Positions 2,701 through 15,689 of a stretch of 64,000 bases of DNA are shown here, one piece after another. A model generated the notes under the pieces. That model worked only from the letters and a program-made list of their open reading frames with translations. It had not been told where the DNA came from and did not search any database. The first letter of the stretch is position 1. The number at the start of each line of letters is the position of its first letter. The DNA is taken from positions 1 through 64,000 of the forward strand of contig JAJOHG010000087.1 in NCBI GenBank assembly GCA_021029095.1, in the 5' to 3' direction. The position numbers and the translations under genes were made by a program. Source of the DNA: Phellopilus nigrolimitatus (Eukaryota > Basidiomycota > Agaricomycetes > Hymenochaetales > Hymenochaetaceae).

Positions 2701-2999
2701 CTCTGCTTTCGTTAGCTTTGACGTGGAGACACGGGAGATTTAATAATGGTCGGCTTTTACAGTTCGATATCACCGCGAATACAATAAAGCTATGACATCG
2801 AACATGCGGAGACTCCAGCGGAGCAGTTCCCAGAGATCTGCTGCAGTGACGCTGGAGAACTCAAGCAAGTGTCGCATTTTCATTCTTTTCGCAGTAATTT
2901 TCTTACCATTTCCATAGAGCCACCTATACAATACGAGAATAAGGCAGTGCCTCTCTTTTCTTCATCGGGCACCCCTCTGATGAATCAGCGGTATAGGAT

Positions 3000-4655
3000 G
3001 ACGATCTGCGCATGTCCTTCCTGCCATCAATCGCGCCCATTGCGCGCTCCATCGCCCAGATACAGTTGTGCCAGCCGATCATCAACTATCTCAGCGATGG
3101 CGAGCCTGATCAGCTCGACAAGGGCGCGCTCGTTTCCGCCATTCCTACAACGTACTACTCGTTTTTTTTCTTCTTGGCGAAATGAATGGCACGTCATAAT
3201 GTGCAGTGCTCGGGTAGACCCGTGACAATACCCATTGCACACCGGTGCGTTATCCTCCGCGCAGGCCCGACGGCATCCTGCTCGATGTGGCCTCCACTCG
3301 CGCGCGCTTTGGCTCTGGCTCCGGCTCCGGCTCCGTCTCTTTCTCCCCCTCCCGCTTGGCGTCCCCGTCGCACTCGCGGGGACGACGCCTCTTTCCTCAC
3401 CACCCCACCGTCCCCGACGCTCTCCATCCGCTCCACCTCTTCCTCGACGGACCATTACCCGACGTCACTCGCGCTGCGAGATAACCGGCCCGACGTGCAC
3501 ACGGGGCTCACGAGCCTCACACTCCCGCCTAACTCGCCGAACTATGGACACATGTGCAAGAGCCCCTTTGCGTCGACACTCGCCGGCTCCGACGGCAGCA
3601 AGCCATCCAGCCTGATAAGCCCGACGATCGGAAATCCTGACTGCTCGTCTGTCCGTAGTGCAGGGCCATGGCCTGAGTATCGATGGCTACCAGAGCCATT
3701 TGTGACGCACGAGCATCACCATCGCCGTGCCATCTTCTACCGGCGGAGGCGACTGCTGCGGCGACGCGGATGCCTTTTCTTCAAGAAAGCACGGAGAAGG
3801 CCAGAAAAGCAAATCCGACACAGACATGGCAGAAGGAAGGAGGAAGGAGAAGGAGAGAGAGGAGTGGGAACGGCAGATCGTGCCCTGCAGCGACGAGCCG
3901 GTGCGGAGGCGGATATGGGTCCGTTCCCTGCGCAGCTCAGCACACTCGCGCTCGCGTAGCTTGTCGAGCCAAAGAGTCTGCATGTGCTCGAGGCACTCGG
4001 CGGCATCAACGGGCTGTTTCGCTCAGGTGCGCGCCGCGGACTGTCCAATCTACGGTCTTCGAATAGGGCAGAGCCCGGCGGTGGGAAAGGCTGAAATGGA
4101 AGCGGCAACGGCGCACTCCTCGCATTCTCCAATGCGGAATCGGGGGCGCACGCTCGCACGCGGACAGCCAGTGCGCGTACGGGCAGAACGTGCTCCGCGC
4201 CCGCGGCAGCAAGACGCTGCTGCTGTTTATGTGGCTAAGGTGCTCGTGCTGCTGTGGCCGTCGTCTCACTCGCGCCTATCGATTGGATTGAAGGTGCGCA
4301 CGGCTTATAGTTCAAATGAGGAAAGGATGCTTATTTTTTTGTGAAGGCGTGGCAATTATGGTTGCGATTGTCATCATATTTTGTCGTTGGCTCGATGAAC
4401 GACTGGCAGAAGGAGAAGCAGTTCAAGAAGCTGGACGAAAAAAAGGGGTTTATCCGCGACAGTGCTGAGAAAGTCATTAACGTGAAGGTGCGTGTCCATT
4501 AAATCATATTATTTTGTTTTTGCTGATTTTCTGCAAAAATGTTGTTAAGACGTGGCTACTGCTAGTAGAGCCGGAGGAGGGCGTCCCGTGCGACGGCGGT
4601 TTTCTTACAGGGAACAATGTCGTCCGTCAAGAGCTACAACGGGCGGATCATTGTG
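3000..4655 (+). pseudogene. Plasma-membrane-type Ca2+-ATPase (P2B) pseudogene, 5' part
   Basis: Recognisable pieces in order are a Ser/Pro-rich N-terminus (FLTTPPSPTLSIRS, LALRDN), LVEPKSLHVLEALGGINGLF, YGQNVL, GVAIMVAIVII, then GSMNDWQKEKQFKKLDEKK and EPEEGVPCDGGFLTGNNV. The NDWQKEKQF motif in the first cytosolic loop is characteristic of calcium pumps of the PMC1/PMCA family. Several frameshifts and stops (for example after STLALA near 3960) separate the pieces. A likely intron begins at the GTGCGT near 4487. The pump stops after the actuator region; the phosphorylation and nucleotide-binding domains are absent. An inverted second copy lies at 22.3-23.3 kb. Confidence 0.75.
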
Positions 4656-9481: not shown

Positions 9482-9889
9482 TAGGGCATACCACGAGTCC
9501 CTAGAACTCGTGGGTACCCGTGACCCGACCTGGACTACAGATCCGTATTCACGGATCACCCGTACACGGGTGAACCGTGGGAAACGGTTTGTCGCGGGTC
9601 CGGGTTGAGAATTCTCGATTTTTAATACCCGTGGGTAGTTCACAGGTCTGAGGAGGCAGTTCGTTCATTTTTATGTTATATTTATGTATGCATGGAAATA
9701 CAATTTGAATCAGCAATGACCCCAACGCACATAAGCACATAAGCACAAAAGCAATATGGATTGACATGGTACACGCGGGCATATGCGCCGCGCAGGTTGC
9801 ACCCTCCTCCCCAGAGTTGGTGTCGAAGACGCACTCGATCGTGCTCGACTCCGCAGTGCGTCCGGCGCAGGGGCACGACGAGGTGTATG

Positions 9890-10297
9890 AGTACAAGGGA
9901 AGCTCGCATCGCCAGGAATTGCGAAGCTGTCGATGGCGAGCGTGTTGAGGGTCTTGAATGCCTTGATCTGGGCCGGCACGGTGCACGCGGAACTGATTTT
10001 GGCGAGGCAGTCGGAGACAAAAAGAATGAGGACGATGAGGACACGGTCAGAGAGTCCCTTGATCTCGAAGTTGCGGAAAAGCGAGTTGGCGCAGAAGAGA
10101 TCGAGTGTCTCGTCAAAAACGTCGGCCTCACTGGCATCCGCTGGTAGTCTCGGGTCGGTTATATTTGTGCAAACAGCATGTAGAGACGCACCTATTGGCG
10201 CGGGTCCGCGAACCTTTGTCCTGATGGGGAGAATGGACACGTTGTCGACCTGATGGACGTCGGGGAGCTCATTGAAGGATGAGTGGTACGCCTGCAC
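9890..10297 (-). pseudogene. ARC18: ARP2/3 complex subunit 3 (ARPC3, p21-Arc) fragment
   Basis: The frame reads AYHSSFNELPDVHQVDNVSILPIRT, RGPAPIG, then DLFCANSLFRNFEIKG, LIVLILFVSDCLAKI and LNTLAIDSFAIPGDASFP (in pieces), following ARPC3, a subunit of the actin-nucleating ARP2/3 complex. A likely intron (GTGCGT...CCAG) lies after RGPAPI, so the source was genomic DNA. The start codon is GTG instead of ATG, and homology is lost after about residue 115, where the rest of the protein should follow. It is inside element A and is surely not functional. Confidence 0.85.
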
Positions 10298-10559
10298 GCT
10301 GTGCTAGACGACCACGCCTGCAGGCTTGCGCCGCCTTGTACACGATGTTCACGCCGAGTGCGAGGTCGAACGCACCCAGCTCAGCCAGTACGTGGAGCCT
10401 GCGCCCCTCCGCTGCAGGGCACTCGGGGATCCCGAATAGCGCGGGCGCGCCGGCGAGTGACTCCGCGAGGACGCGCGCGCCGATGCTAGCGTAGTCGACG
10501 TTCTCGAGCGGCACATTTACGAGGCGCACCGCAACCGTGCCGAACGCGAACGTGCGCAC
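10272..10559 (-). pseudogene. Unrecognised gene fragment in element A
   Basis: This is an open frame with protein-like composition (TVAVRLVNVPLENVDYASIG, LFGIPECPAAEGRRLHVLAE, LGAFDLALGVNIVYKAAQ). It has a mixed hydrophobic/charged pattern unlike the low-complexity frames around it. I do not recognise the family. It lies directly upstream of the ARPC3 piece on the same strand and slightly overlaps it, so the two were probably captured separately and joined. Confidence 0.4.
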
Positions 10560-10877
10560 AAGCCGCCCCGCGCTCGACTAGCCGAAACATGAGGAACTAA
10601 GCGAAAGCAGCGAACAATGTGTTTGCGCCTGAGCGGACACGGTTCCTACGGAGGCGGAGACAGACGCGGGTGTGCTGAAGACAGACGAAGATTCGGGTGT
10701 CGAGAGCGAAGCAGTTGAAGGCATCGAAGAGGAGCTTGCCGAACCAGATCCAGAGCCGTGCGAGCGGGACAGGAATGCAAAGAACGAGTGCCTTTGTATC
10801 CCTGTCCTTAGACGAGGTGAACCAGCCTGTGGTAGTCTCTGTGCTCAGAACCCATCAAAAACCTCAACTTATGACTT

Positions 10878-11360
10878 ACAACTGAGCCTTCCCAACTGAT
10901 CAAGCTTTCCGGTGTCGCCGCGGGACAGGCATGCACGGCAGTATTGGGCGGTTCGACGACACAGATGGTCGACGAGGCCGAGCACTCGCTACACGACGCC
11001 CTGTCCGTGCTCTCACAGACCGACCGCGACACGCGTGGATGCGCAGATGCGCATGAGCTGTGCAGTGGATGACGACGCGCGGTGCGTCGCGGGCAAACAG
11101 GCACTCGCTGCCGAGGCTTTCGCGCGGGCCCTGCGTGCGATCCCAACCGTCCTTGCTGATAATGTCGACTCGGCGGACCTCGTTTTGCGGGGCTGGACCT
11201 GATGGAGGGCGTCGCGGCGGTTCAATCAATTACGATCAAGAATGATGTTGTCCTCGGACTAGAAGGAGCGCACGCCGCGAGCAGCGCCGCGGCGTCTTCA
11301 ACGGAGGTTGTTGACATCAATGAGGGCGACAGCTTCGGCGAGCGGTGTGGAAGAAGAGCG
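10878..11360 (+). pseudogene. CCT2: Chaperonin CCT subunit beta fragment
   Basis: The frame reads [20 protein letters not shown], then [16 protein letters not shown] and, after a frameshift near 11030, [37 protein letters not shown] and DSADLV. This is the C-terminal part of the intermediate/equatorial region of CCT-beta, a subunit of the cytosolic TRiC chaperonin. The terminal QVVL...RVDDI region is badly eroded. It is oriented opposite to the ARPC3 fragment and lies inside element A. Confidence 0.88.
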
Positions 11361-11594
11361 TGAGAATGCGGCCAGTGCTCGTTTACTAATATATTTAATT
11401 GATTCAAAAACCCATAGGGAACCGTAAATATACCCACTGACCTCCGTGACCTGGACCCACGGGTTTGGGGGCACCTGTGAATCCGAGTCCCAACGGGTCC
11501 AGGTCGAAGCGGGTCCGGGTTGAGGATTTTGGGTCACGGGTAGATCCGCCAACAGGTCCGGGTCAACCCGGGGATCGACTCGTGGTATGCCCTA

Positions 11595-11806
11595 CCAGGA
11601 AGTGCCGTAATCACTTCTGGGGTTCCGCAAAATCCGACTCTTTGAGGAGATTAAACTCCGCTGCCCACGCCTTCTTCTGCTCTGGCATCATCGCGTACAC
11701 AAATTGCTTTATGTCCGCGGAACTCTTCAATTCACGCACCTCTACCCCAGTGGACACGCTTGTTCCCGTGCCTCCACTGGGTGGCATGTCAGATGTCGTA
11801 GCGCGC
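11595..11806 (-). pseudogene. Gypsy gag, 3' end, between elements A and B
   Basis: With element B and one copy of TAGCGCGC removed, the gag frame continues here without a break (TEVRA then TTSDMPPSGG) and ends KESDFAEPQK plus TGA at 11611-11613. This shows that the two hAT elements entered a single Gypsy copy. The pol frame overlaps the gag stop in the -1 phase. Confidence 0.8.
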
Positions 11807-11989
11807 TAGGGCATAGCACGGGTCGCTCCGTGGGTAGATCCGGATCCGTTTGCGCGGGTATGAGAATTTCAAAACTCAGACCCGGACTCTCGTCTGACCC
11901 GGATCCGCAGGTCTGCATGACCTGCGGGTCCGGGTCAGGCGGGTCCGGGTCTAGTGGGTATGCATATTGATCCGTGGGTCCTCAGTATT

Positions 11990-12625
11990 CAGTAGGAAAA
12001 AGAATAAGTAAATACAGCTTTGTGAGTTTGTGCGATGGTCGTAGGAGCAGCGACGGCGATATATACGTTTGCGTTTATTACGCAATCCGGAACATGAAAC
12101 GACGTTGCGCGTGCAACCTAGGTCTGTAGGCACACAAGCTTCTTGTGCTTGCGAACTCGCCCGGTGTGACCTTTGCGGCGTGAAAGCTCCGCTGTCACAA
12201 AGCAGGTCGACAAAGCAAATGGCGATGCACCCGTCAACGTTGAGGATGAGTGCTTTCTTCGCCGTGGTGACCTTCTCGACTGCAAGCGCGTAGTCGAGTA
12301 GCGAGTGGCTAGAGAAATGCTTCAACACATACTCCTTTACGAGCTCGACACGCACACCAGGGTTGTTCACGCTCTTGATCTTGTGCCCGATACCCCGATA
12401 CCACTAACTATGGAGAATCTCTCAGTAGATGGTAAGCGAAGAAAGTGATTATACACACACTAAGCTTGTTCGCCTTACGCGACTCATCGACGAGCTCACA
12501 CGGGGTCAGGCCGGCATCGCGTGCATTCGAGAACATACAGGCGGCTCCGTCGAGAGCGCCACCGAAGCGGGAGCCGACAGTGAGCGAACCAGACGCGAGC
12601 GAAGAGACAAGGTCCTTGCCTGCAC
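11990..12625 (-). pseudogene. ACL1: ATP-citrate lyase, C-terminal fragment
   Basis: It begins [25 protein letters not shown] and goes on [20 protein letters not shown], an intron-like gap (about 12415-12465), IGHKIKSVNNPGVRVELV (parts), LDYALAVEKVTT and LILNVDGCIAICFVDLL. This is the citrate-synthase-like end of ATP-citrate lyase, which makes cytosolic acetyl-CoA. Homology is lost after GAFTP. It is joined directly to RPL30 sequence upstream (HHFS then AGKDL). Confidence 0.9.
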
Positions 12626-12695
12626 GAGAAGTGGTGCACAGTCGTTTTTGAGAGCATGGTGTAGCACTCGAGCTCGGACTTGCGCACTCGCTTTG
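12626..12695 (-). pseudogene. RPL30: Ribosomal protein L30 (eL30), internal exon fragment
   Basis: The frame [19 protein letters not shown] matches the conserved middle of eL30 ([17 protein letters not shown]). It is wedged between an unrecognised piece and ATP-citrate lyase and separated from the first RPL30 exon by about 1.3 kb of other genes. The two RPL30 pieces keep their natural order, which suggests that the other fragments were inserted into an earlier RPL30 capture. Confidence 0.85.
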
Positions 12696-13030
12696 CCCGA
12701 AGCCCACAGAGGCGCCCAACATCGTGAGGTCCTCGCCTCCACCTATGCCTCCCGCAGCCGTCGACGGCAAGGATGTCGGCAGGCCCAGTGTCGTGCCGCC
12801 TGCAAACCCCGCGCCGCCGCCCGGCCCACCGAAGTAGTCCATCCCCGCGCCCGGCGAGACGAGCTCGCTGAGCTGCGGCGCGCGGGGGTACGGTGGCGCG
12901 AGAGTGAGCTGCGGTGCAGCATGTGGCATCAGCTCCGCGCCGGACCCCGCAGAGAACGCACTGTGCAGCGTGCCCGGCGAGCACGCGCTGTCGCACAGCG
13001 ACGCGTTCTGCGAGTGCATGCCCGTGCTCT
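12696..13030 (-). pseudogene. Unrecognised Gly/Pro-rich fragment in element B
   Basis: The open frame contains [20 protein letters not shown] and [17 protein letters not shown]. Such Gly-rich tails occur in many fungal proteins and I cannot name it. It sits between the V-ATPase and RPL30 pieces on the same strand, so it is probably a fourth captured gene. Confidence 0.35.
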
Positions 13031-14030
13031 AGTCGTGGTACGGGAATGCGAGTGATTGTGGCCTGTGTTGTATAGCGCAGTCGAAAGGTCTTCGAGACGC
13101 GTGTTTACATCACGCAGAGCGTCTGTACGCTTGTCCGCGTTTGAATTGATACGATGAAGTGTCGCACCCATTGAATCCGCAACCATACAAATCTTCGCGA
13201 GCAATACCTTGCCATGCATGAAAATGATGAACACATTCTTGCGTGTCTCCTCGCCAGTAGCAGGGTTGATGAACGGCTCCTCGATGTCGTACAGGTTTCC
13301 TCGCAGTACACGCCATACTATGCGCTCGAACGTAAGCATGCGAGAGCGCTCAATTGTTCTGTAAACAAATATGCGGGAAGATGAGTAAGTCAACAGAAAC
13401 ATTCATTAGAAAAACATACTCCAAGTCGAAGCCTCCAGACAAAGATTGACTCGCTGAGAACTGATTCTCAGTATCGTCATGCTGGAGCAAAGGTGTAGCG
13501 CTACCATTGAACGACGTTCGAATTTTGCTCTGGTATCCCTCAGCCTGGTAGCATGTCGGTGAGCGCGCTCTACGCCACAAACTGGAACTGTCGATGCGCA
13601 CCTTCAGGAAGAAAACAGCAGTCTCATGAAGAACATGTCTCGCTTCGATAAGCTCCCTCGGGCAGTCGCTCAATGTCTGCTAGCTGTCGTTCATTTGCAC
13701 TAGTCTCTTCTCGTTCTCTGCGAGCTGAAAATAGAGCTTGTCGATTGCCTGAGGGCCGCGCGGGCTGGCCGAAATCATCATCGACGCAGACCTGTACAAA
13801 GGTCTGACACGTATGGGATCCTTTTCCTTCTCTGTTTGCGACGCGAAAAAACCGGTCCCATCTGGCCATCTTGTCGATGCGGTGTATCTCGGCGACATAT
13901 GAGCGTTGGAAGGGATTGACGTCTGGGTTGAACTGTTTACTTGTTAACAATAGTTATGATAGAAAGGATGATCCAACATACATCTTTGAACTGGCCGTTT
14001 CCGAGCTCCCCAAGCTCATAAAGCACGCGC
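13031..14030 (-). pseudogene. VPH1: V-type H+-ATPase subunit a, N-terminal fragment
   Basis: The pieces in order are LYELGELGNGQFKD, an intron (GTATGT to AACAG, about 13935-13982), FNPDVNPFQRSYVAEIHRID, EKEKDPIRVRPLY, RELIEARHVLHETAVFF, SFNGSATPLLQHDDTENQFS, a further intron-like break, [33 protein letters not shown] and [13 protein letters not shown] (motifs shortened). This is the cytosolic N-terminal half of subunit a, which anchors the proton pump to the vacuolar membrane. Several frameshifts and one stop are present. The fragment starts and stops inside the protein, in element B. Confidence 0.9.
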
Positions 14031-14120
14031 AGACTTGTAGCCAAGCGAGTATTTGCCCGACTTCACGACGAGCGCGGGATGAGAGGAGATGGACGAGGTG
14101 GACTTCTTGGAGGGGGCCAT
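14031..14120 (-). pseudogene. RPL30: Ribosomal protein L30 (eL30), first exon
   Basis: It starts with ATG at 14120: MAPSKKSTSSISSHPALVV, then KSGKYSLGYKS, the N-terminus of eL30. After YKS the sequence switches within a few bases to V-ATPase subunit a in another frame. The start codon and reading frame are intact, so this piece could supply a start to a chimeric transcript, but the switch leads to a stop (ARAL then TGA). Confidence 0.85.
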
Positions 14121-14470
14121 CTCGGTTTTGTCAAGGGGACACGTCGAGTGTCTGGCTGTCGGCGTGCATATGCAGCTGCTGCTAGCGCTGCTTCTGTTGA
14201 TGCCGCTGTTGTTGCTGGTGCAAGGGTGGGGTGGCCCTGCGCCGCGCATGTGCACGTCCCAATCGCAGTCGCGCGGCCGAGAGGGGATGGCCTTGGAGAT
14301 CGAAAGCGGCGAACGTGCGGATGGCACGCATGTCTTTCCTGATAGGGAACACCGTACTTTCTTTGAACGACACACGAAAATTCGAGCACAACTCGGCGAA
14401 AAAAAGTGGGCACCAAAACTTGGTGGAAACATTGCTAATCTATATAGACATGTATCACCTACAAGTCCTC
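14121..14470. other. Left-over DNA of element B upstream of the RPL30 start
   Basis: A CTGCTG-rich stretch (14170-14225) is followed by ordinary sequence. It could be the captured RPL30 upstream region. No clear promoter motif is seen. Confidence 0.3.
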
Positions 14471-14639
14471 AATACCCGTGGGTAACCGTGGGTCTGTAAA
14501 ATCTGCAAAAATCCAGACCCGGACTCCCGCTGATCCGTGGGAAACGGATCACCCATGCACGGGTGATCCGAACCCGTGAGTGTTCCCATGGATCCACTTG
14601 CGGGTTACCGTGGGTAAACCTGACCCGTGCTATGCTCTA

Positions 14640-15549
14640 TAGCGCGCACCTCCGTCTTTTGGCGATTTGGACAAAACTTGCCAATGTGACCCGGTAGTCC
14701 ACATTTGTAACAAACACCCTTCTGCCTCGCCTCATCGAGATTCATCGGCTGTCCCGTGCCGGTGAAGACGGTCCCTGTGCCATCGCGTTTATAGGTAGGA
14801 GCGGTATTAGGCGCAGTACGAGTGGTCGTTGTCTGTTTGGGTTTCCTGGCAACAGGGGGGTTGTGTGGTGTCTGCTGGCGGCGCACTTCTTTTAGTCGAC
14901 GCTCAAGGTTGTCAAAGCGAATCACCTTCTGCTTCCACCCGTTGTAGGTAGCGGGTAGAATTTCCGAGCTGTAAATCCTTGTGACGATCGACTCGTTGAG
15001 TTGCCGTTCCAAGAGCTCAATAAGGTACTGGTCATGATTCCTGCTGTACCCAGCTATTCGGCGAAGAATGTCGAAGTTCTGGAAGAACTCTTCAGCCAAT
15101 GTCAAGCCCTGGCGCAGAGATGATAGGTTACGCTGAGCCGTCTGTGCCTCGTTGGCATCGTGGAACGAATCCTTGAGCTGCCCGAGGAAAACGTCCCAGG
15201 CGCCGAAATCAGGATAGTCGTCTGTTCCGTCTGCAATGGCTTTGTCGATAAAGTTCTCTGCCCATTTACTGGCGCGTCCCTCCGTCATGAATGAAAGCGT
15301 AAACTCGATTTTCTCGTCCTCAGTCGTAAAGTCCTTTTTGTTCGCCCAAAGGAACAATTTGACTTGTCGTATGAACTTTTTGTAGTCCTTCCCCGAAAAA
15401 GGGTCAGGTTTCGCTACATGGGTCTTCTTCTTTTTGTCAAAGAGTCCCGCAAGAAAAGGGTCTGCCCCGGGCATGGGCGAGGGTAGTCGTGAGCGCTCGG
15501 GTTGCTGCCACTCCTGCTCGTCAGCTGGGTTGGTAGCTGGTGCATGCAT
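14640..15549 (-). CDS. Gypsy Gag (main part; frame interrupted by element B)
   Basis: The open frame of about 300 codons begins at an ATG at 15549 (MHAPATNPADEQEW). It contains a capsid-like segment (FSGKDYKKFIRQVKLFL, WAENFIDKA, FLGQLKDSFHD), basic residues and one CCHC zinc knuckle, CYKCGLPGHIGKFC, near the end. It packages the retroelement RNA. The original frame continues at 11806. An upstream ATG in another frame (MSETNPLDQV) stops early, so the start is not certain. Confidence 0.85.
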
Positions 15550-15689
15550 GCTACCCGTCAGACCTGATCCAGAGGGTTGGTTTCTGACATCGTTTCTGAT
15601 GACGAATCATCGTTCAGGGGAATGGGCAATCTCCTGTCCCAAACGGGGTCCAGGGTGGGCTCTATGCGCGGTAGAAAGTCTATTTACTG

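What the first reader, a model, noticed from the sequence alone, without database searches (positions are those of the whole stretch)
11807..14639. hAT-like element B has captured pieces of at least three, probably four, unrelated host genes
Within 2.8 kb closed by 18-bp inverted repeats and an 8-bp duplication (TAGCGCGC) lie RPL30, V-ATPase subunit a, an unrecognised Gly-rich piece and ATP-citrate lyase, all on the minus strand and with introns. Two RPL30 pieces enclose the V-ATPase and Gly-rich pieces, so capture was stepwise. Pack-type gene capture is well known for plant MULEs and Helitrons; a fungal hAT family doing this would be new to me.
Basis: partly seen in the sequence, partly recalled or inferred. 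Interest (0 to 1): 0.9.

Follow-up and report, generated by a model that had tools for sequence, protein, structure and literature searches.

The report
Mushroom transposon hoarding host gene pieces
A hAT-type DNA transposon in what is likely a mushroom-forming fungus carries pieces, introns included, of three identified and unrelated host genes plus one piece of unknown origin, sits at three separate places in the genome, and belongs to a family whose members hold different host gene pieces, so it likely shuffles exons much as the Pack elements of plants do.

Summary
Window 11807-14639 is a 2,833-bp hAT-type element (18-bp inverted ends, 17/18; 8-bp duplication TAGCGCGC). Two more full copies (99.6%, 99.4%) lie at unrelated sites with their own duplications, so the chimera moved as a unit; all 19 other matches to the joined target flanks run uninterrupted across the site. 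Donor genes for three pieces lie elsewhere in the genome: ATP-citrate lyase, V-ATPase subunit a, RPL30. Introns were retained; the coding pieces are decayed. The Gly-rich piece has no identified donor. Relatives share some junctions and lack this V-ATPase piece, so capture was stepwise. In the family, 21 two-ended copies were found, 18 with perfect 8-bp duplications; other members carry PRP40, velvet, BET or a PAK-type p21-binding domain. A 6.2-kb member with the same ends encodes a hAT transposase and is the likely mover. What is not new is the kind: Pack-hATs are published for plants and animals, and hATs that amplified one histone H3 gene for other fungi. An intron-bearing, multi-donor Pack-hAT family in a basidiomycete was not seen in the listed results of eight searches of the open paper library. 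Route of capture and transcription remain untested.

The parts
11799..11806 (.). left target-site duplication TAGCGCGC
11807..14639 (.). whole element (non-autonomous Pack-hAT, 2,833 bp)
   Evidence: two further full copies at C357 and C335
11807..11824 (+). 5' terminal inverted repeat, 18 bp
11825..12007 (.). 5' subterminal DNA rich in ACCCG/GGGTC motifs, shared with the transposase-bearing members
   Evidence: element 1-201: 93% to C25; 1-195: 76% to C611:80529-86777; motif density in 200-bp ends versus interior of 11 elements
12177..12626 (-). ATP-citrate lyase piece with one intron; donor gene on C614 (locus L035)
12628..12684 (-). RPL30 exon-2 piece (donor positions 487-431 of L045)
12682..13052 (-). 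Gly-rich piece, donor unknown; elsewhere in the genome at 68-80% identity (strand assumed from the neighbouring pieces)
13056..14022 (-). V-ATPase subunit a piece with two introns; one stop in the donor's frame and one 1-base exon insertion; donor gene C618/C46 (L023/L024)
14027..14176 (-). RPL30 5' leader and first 36 codons (donor positions 286-122 of L045; cut before the first splice donor)
14177..14238 (.). short block of unknown origin next to the RPL30 leader in several members
14240..14639 (.). 3' subterminal region, shared at 82-85% over nearly its whole length with C91, C619, C112 and C611:3084-5501
14622..14639 (-). 3' terminal inverted repeat, 18 bp
14640..14647 (.). right target-site duplication TAGCGCGC
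11603..11806 (.). target DNA: left part of the interrupted LTR-retrotransposon gag region
14648..15606 (-). target DNA: rest of the gag-like open frame with zinc knuckle (named by eye)

Best explanation
This is a non-autonomous Pack-type hAT transposon, in a genome that is likely a basidiomycete's, that holds DNA copied, introns included, from ATP-citrate lyase, RPL30 and V-ATPase subunit a genes plus a Gly-rich piece of unknown origin, and it is likely moved in trans by the hAT transposase encoded by larger members with the same ends. Shown: the ends, the 8-bp duplications, three full copies at unrelated sites, uninterrupted paralogous target sites, the donor genes, retained introns, junctions shared with relatives, and a transposase-coding member whose ends carry the same 18-bp motif. 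Inferred: an ancestor first took a contiguous RPL30 piece, then the Gly-rich piece at the border of its first exon and intron; ATP-citrate lyase was joined beside it before V-ATPase arrived. Inferred and untested: each capture probably happened when a break or stalled fork inside the element was repaired by copying from an ectopic host gene (template switching), after which ordinary cut-and-paste transposition spread the result.
For: Ends and duplications: 21 facing neighbour pairs within 10 kb among 76 ends; 18 of 21 have perfect 8-bp duplications. The three full copies differ by 10, 12 and 18 of 2,833 bases, with no flank similarity (E 1e-5) in 2 kb on either side. Empty paralogous sites: all 19 matches to the joined window flanks other than the window's own two halves cross the junction; three at 88-93% and ten at 68-72% for C357. 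Donors: L035, L023, L045. Introns kept, point decay. Shared junctions: ATP-citrate lyase 1201 | RPL30 487 in the window element and C21, 1202 | 483 in C624; RPL30-Gly-RPL30 order in C625, C610, C368 and, partly inverted, C13, without V-ATPase in the DNA fetched. Transposase: joined exon-like pieces of C611:80529-86777 hit PF05699 at 2.6e-8, the transposase chains 4d1q and 2bw3 at 4e-5, and 56 proteins of which 32 carry PF05699 in the table. No internal remnant of the ends at 5 mismatches or fewer; two places at 6.
Against: Capture route not shown: at about 10% divergence from the donors the breakpoints cannot be read to the base; by eye they show 0-3 bp overlaps or short fillers, which fit end-joining too. 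Three of 21 copies (C25, C135:181459, C603) lack the duplication. For C335 the empty paralogous sites are partial or weak (72-85%). Loci C610 (near 90 kb), C368, C13, C624, C21, C90 and C113 carry parts of the cargo with no pair of ends found in the DNA fetched, at up to 6 mismatches an end with a matching duplication, although C610 and C368 are collinear over 1.4-1.8 kb with C625, for which one end is known. PF05699 was not listed on C25 or C611 by the six-frame genome search, only after joining exon-like pieces. The basidiomycete host is inferred from transposase relatives only.
Confidence: 0.87

Rival explanations
1. Capture by neighbouring insertions: two copies of the family land on either side of host DNA, the outer ends are used together, and the inner ends decay (the model given for plant Pack-TYPE elements).
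For: Close pairs of the same family with separate duplications exist, both in inverted orientation: C598 (two 3,324-bp copies, 100% after rounding, 1.9 kb apart) and C379 (two 376-bp copies, 376 of 376 identical, 0.8 kb apart). The model is described in PMC8903248 (section 9).
Against: No inner end remnant at 5 mismatches or fewer in the window element, and pieces from genes on different contigs abut each other directly, which would need repeated rounds and complete loss of the inner ends.
Confidence: 0.25
2. The RPL30-Gly core was assembled outside the family (pseudogene, Helitron or segmental duplication) and was taken up as a ready-made block.
For: C610 (near 90 kb), C368 and C13 carry the core without a recognised pair of ends; the Gly-rich donor is unknown.
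Against: The RPL30-Gly part lies about 0.35-0.38 kb inside a family end in C598, C625 and C633, and C625 has the second RPL30 piece too; C610 and C368 are collinear with C625 on both sides of the core. It would not explain the ATP-citrate lyase and V-ATPase pieces.
Confidence: 0.08
3. The chimera is kept as an expressed gene: RPL30 leader and first exon joined to the downstream pieces.
For: RPL30 leader and first-exon DNA are kept in several members; 6 of 7 Pfam- or PDB-identified cargo genes of the family read in the same direction as the transposase gene.
Against: The RPL30 first-exon piece ends at codon 36-37, before its splice donor. The V-ATPase piece has a stop in the donor's frame and a 1-base exon insertion, and the ATP-citrate lyase piece an 8-base exon insertion (by eye). 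No RNA data are at hand. 6 of 7 is not significant (one-sided binomial 0.06).
Confidence: 0.08
4. Assembly artefact or chance similarity.
For: The assembly is fragmented (635 contigs) and appears to hold two haplotypes (C618/C46 99.56% alike).
Against: Three copies in different contigs with different duplications and flanks; the ATP-citrate lyase and V-ATPase matches run for 441 and 964 aligned bases at 90-91%.
Confidence: 0.01

Closest known systems
Pack-TYPE transposons of plants, Pack-hAT included (PMC8903248; passages and section 9 read)
   Same: hAT ends, 8-bp duplications, non-autonomous elements carrying pieces of host genes, with successive acquisitions described for other superfamilies
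   Different: that paper covers plants; here a likely basidiomycete, with three identified donors plus one unknown piece within one 2.8-kb element and a traceable order of capture
Pack-TIRs of animals, with Pack-hAT-N8_XT of the frog (PMC8277862; abstract and passages read)
   Same: captured DNA inside hAT ends, multicopy by transposition; template switching is the proposed route
   Different: the passages seen describe young captures in animals; here captures are layered and about 10% diverged from their donors while the copies are recent
hAT transduplication of histone H3 in Pyrenophora tritici-repentis (PMC3538342) and in Pseudocercospora and relatives (PMC6710886); passages read
   Same: fungal hAT with a host gene between its ends; a large transposase-bearing and a shorter form in Pyrenophora; 8-bp duplications and 18-20-bp ends in Pseudocercospora and Cercospora
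   Different: one gene, captured as transcript or retrocopy according to PMC6710886; here many genes as genomic DNA with introns
Helitrons of Pleurotus and other fungi with captured genes (PMC4289320; search listing and start of abstract only)
   Same: captured gene fragments in basidiomycete transposons
   Different: rolling-circle elements, without inverted ends and target duplications (recalled)
Active hAT families of Marasmius oreades (PMC9674265; passages read)
   Same: basidiomycete hAT with transposase-bearing and non-autonomous members sharing ends
   Different: no gene capture in the passages seen ('captured' and 'gene fragment' occur 0 times in the main text)

Membership tests
hAT superfamily | 8-bp target-site duplication | tested here: met
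   18 of 21 two-ended copies, the window copy included
hAT superfamily | short inverted ends starting C/TAGRG (motif recalled) | tested here: met
   TAGGG/TAGAG, 18 bp
hAT superfamily | transposase with hAT C-terminal dimerisation region in a member with the same ends | tested here: met
   C611:80529-86777, PF05699 E 2.6e-8, 4d1q/2bw3 E 4e-5, homologues with PF05699, all on joined exon-like pieces; not listed by the six-frame search
hAT superfamily | this transposase moves these ends | not testable with these tools
   needs an excision assay
Pack-TYPE element (Pack-hAT) | host gene pieces inside the ends with donors elsewhere in the genome | tested here: met
   ACL L035, V-ATPase a L023, RPL30 L045; Gly-rich piece without donor
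Pack-TYPE element (Pack-hAT) | no transposase of its own | tested here: inconclusive
   49 frames listed, 8 of them scanned without a transposase match; not all frames scanned
Pack-TYPE element (Pack-hAT) | moved as a unit after capture | tested here: met
   three copies with separate duplications and unrelated flanks
Pack-TYPE element (Pack-hAT) | chimeric transcription of cargo | not testable with these tools
   no RNA data at hand
Mutator-like element (Pack-MULE) | 9-11-bp target-site duplication (recalled) | tested here: not met
   the 9-mers beside the element differ, GTAGCGCGC and TAGCGCGCA
Helitron | no inverted ends and no target duplication (recalled) | tested here: not met
   both are present
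Fungal histone H3 hAT transduplication | single gene captured without introns | tested here: not met
   several donors, introns kept

The most novel reading that the evidence does not exclude
The family is an exon-shuffling machine: elements keep the RPL30 leader and start of its first exon as a ready-made transcription and translation start and stack further host exons behind it in the transposase's reading direction, so that each transposition delivers a chimeric transcript unit, or antisense and small RNAs that act on the donor genes.
Probability: 0.12. Interest if true: 0.8.

Novelty: new variant of a known kind. Interest (0 to 1): 0.58.

Why it matters
Gene capture by hAT elements is known from plants, animals and, for one intronless gene, from ascomycete fungi. 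Here one small fungal genome holds a recently spread family with a transposase-coding member, identifiable donor genes, empty sites, and relatives frozen at different stages of capture. That would make the disputed route of capture (gap repair versus neighbouring insertions) testable in a fungus.

Tried and rejected
Ribosomal L7Ae family hits on C1, C223:391800, C223:45300 and C117 were fetched as possible RPL30 genes and rejected (no match to the element); C603:424400-425300 is the RPL30 gene. C446:93966-95803 was first taken for RPL30 and is another chimeric locus with an RPL30 N-terminus. The donor of the Gly-rich piece was sought by DNA (23 matches, none above 80% outside the three copies) and not found. 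A GATA-like cargo of C91 is weak (PF00320 E 0.0018, below the curated cut-off); C625:102000-104600 resembles it at 80-85% but was not shown to be a gene. The search for hidden pairs of ends around 15 loci gave no new pair with a duplication. The PF05699 genome search did not list the family's own transposase. Genome DNA searches score at most 40 candidates, so (40 of 114; 40 of 125; 40 of 263; 40 of 93; 40 of 116) give lower bounds; a locus like C90/C113 at C446:192742-193072 was not fetched.

Paper searches for the novelty statement: (open-licence library only; no preprints, most subscription journals missing; several listings were cut, for example 15 of 2,169, 20 of 39, 15 of 28, 15 of 23).

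Full report
Observation. The element at 11807-14639 has 18-bp inverted ends (17 of 18 identical) and an 8-bp duplication TAGCGCGC. It lies in a gag-like open frame of an LTR retrotransposon (the zinc knuckle was read by eye). The end motif with at most one mismatch occurs 76 times in the 56.4-Mb genome (48 exact) and its reversed control 0 times.

Movement as a unit. Two other full-length copies exist, C357:137311-140143 and C335:164188-167020. They have duplications of their own, ATAAGCAG and ATAAGAGT. The three copies differ by 10, 12 and 18 of 2,833 bases, and 2 kb of flank on either side shows no similarity between them at E 1e-5. For scale, the two apparent haplotypes of the V-ATPase locus differ by 0.44%. 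The joined flanks of the window copy find 21 matches: two are the window's own halves and all 19 others cross the junction uninterrupted (14 of them over essentially the whole query at 91-92%; two begin at a contig end). For C357 three matches at 88-93% and ten at 68-72% cross it. For C335 only partial or weaker matches cross it (72-85%). The cargo therefore arrived with the element.

Donors. ATP-citrate lyase: element 371-820 matches the gene on C614 at 88.7% including an intron; the neighbouring open frame carries CoA-ligase domains. V-ATPase a: element 1250-2216 matches C618/C46 at 88.5% with two introns, and the gene continues beyond the captured stretch. RPL30: element 822-878 and 2221-2370 match the gene at C603:424400-425300. 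Identity of the pieces was confirmed against PDB sequences and Pfam. Gapped global alignment gives 91%, 90% and 88% identity over aligned bases for the ACL, V-ATPase and RPL30-leader pieces; 123 of 153 changes are transitions. Read by eye: the V-ATPase piece has a stop in the donor's frame, a 1-base exon insertion and a 12-base exon deletion; the ACL piece an 8-base exon insertion and a 3-base deletion; the other small indels fall in introns. From these distances captures look old and the spread of the finished element recent (inference).

Order of capture (inference by shared junctions). C625 and C610 have RPL30 donor positions from 483-485 down to 313, then the Gly-rich piece, then 283-286 down to 125; C368 is similar with gaps and C13 partly inverted. 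The Gly-rich piece thus interrupts a contiguous RPL30 piece; the missing stretch, 287-312, is the end of the first exon with the splice donor. None of these four has V-ATPase there. The ATP-citrate lyase | RPL30 junction (1201 | 487) of the window element recurs in C21 and, at 1202 | 483, in C624, which has ACL, RPL30 and Gly-rich pieces and no V-ATPase. The V-ATPase range 2001-2978 was found only in the three copies and the donor (one search is capped); C90 and C113 hold an overlapping but different range (2748-3301 and 2712-3301) beside a bit of the Gly-rich piece, so V-ATPase was either caught twice or trimmed differently. A separate 90-110-bp ATP-citrate lyase piece sits beside the RPL30 leader in C610, C13, C368 and C625. 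A 1.3-kb one lies in C430 and, with an internal gap, in C334 and C383, the last two also with another part of RPL30.

The family. Of 76 ends, 21 facing neighbour pairs lie within 10 kb. 18 of 21 have perfect 8-bp duplications: C622, C357, C335, C91, C619, C112, C611 (two), C135:160714, C183, C446, C598 (two), C379 (two), C36, C224, C544; not C25, C135:181459 and C603. Cargo in others: C598, PRP40-type FF domains (PF01846 E 3.1e-19) from the gene on C246 at 91.6%, plus Gly-rich and RPL30 pieces; C135:160714, velvet (PF11754 E 6.4e-22; locus on C620 at 87.7%) and BET (PF17035 E 2.3e-7; locus on C1 at 95.6%); C25 and C611:80529, p21-binding domain (PF00786 E 2.1e-22 and 1.3e-13; donor not sought). 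Not every member's cargo was identified. The terminal 200 bp of 11 elements hold ACCCG 209 times in 4,400 bp against 76 in 29,489 bp of interior, both strands counted.

Transposase. C611:80529-86777 has identical 18-bp ends and a duplication. tblastx against C25 shows conserved coding pieces, among them DGWTSPN, CDNASNND and SVDVERAFSRG. Joined, they hit Dimer_Tnp_hAT at 2.6e-8, the transposase chains 4d1q and 2bw3, which I recall as Hermes, at 4e-5, and 56 proteins (7,995 candidates scored), 32 with PF05699; the best named ones are from Antrodiella, Phanerochaete, Agrocybe, Coprinopsis, Trametes and Ganoderma, weaker ones include Puccinia and an oyster. Hence the inference that the host is an agaricomycete. 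That this transposase moves the window element is inferred from the shared ends.

Mechanism. DNA-level capture is shown by the introns. The route is inferred: the pieces come from genes on different contigs, abut without inner ends (none at 5 mismatches or fewer, two places at 6), and show 0-3 bp overlaps or short fillers by eye. This fits template switching in gap repair as proposed for animal Pack-TIRs (PMC8277862, passages) better than fusion of neighbouring insertions as proposed for plants (PMC8903248, section 9), though close pairs exist (C598 and C379, both inverted). Strand: ACL, RPL30, V-ATPase, PRP40, velvet and BET read in the transposase's direction, the p21-binding piece against it (6 of 7); this is suggestive only.

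Known or new. Pack-hATs are known in plants and animals and hAT capture of histone H3 in Dothideomycete fungi. The listed results of eight searches of the open paper library showed no intron-bearing, multi-donor Pack-hAT family in a basidiomycete; absence there is weak evidence.

Noticed in passing
window 9482-11594: A neighbouring element with related ends (TAGGGCATACCACGAGTC, duplication CCAGGAAG) carries an ARPC3 piece (PF04062 E 1.8e-36; gene at C223, 91%) and pieces matching a second locus (C112:523129, 87-95%). A copy at C611:68478-70590 has 100% identity and its own duplication CTGCGCGA.
   Followed up: partly
window 8360 and 6220: Further ends of the TAGGGC(AT/TC)ACCACGAGTC type on the minus strand without a found partner.
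   Followed up: no
C598:62032-70533 and C379:136729-138326: Close inverted pairs of family copies with different duplications: apparent local insertions.
   Followed up: partly
L016 (C25) and L029 (C611): Both transposase-bearing members also carry a p21-binding-domain (PAK-type) frame on the strand opposite the transposase; in C611 part of this stretch is duplicated in tandem.
   Followed up: partly
window 12177-14176 against the donors: 123 of 153 changes are transitions; 38 of 146 donor CpG became TpG/CpA against 18 of 122 element CpG that are TpG/CpA in the donor, a possible methylation trace.
   Followed up: partly
L020/L021 (C21): Two inverted copies on one contig carry the ACL and adjoining RPL30 stretch of the element; in the one mapped in detail (L020) a velvet piece lies next to it.
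   Followed up: partly
L011, L014, L015, L036, L063: A GATA-like, low-complexity coding block recurs in several members; domain evidence is weak.
   Followed up: partly
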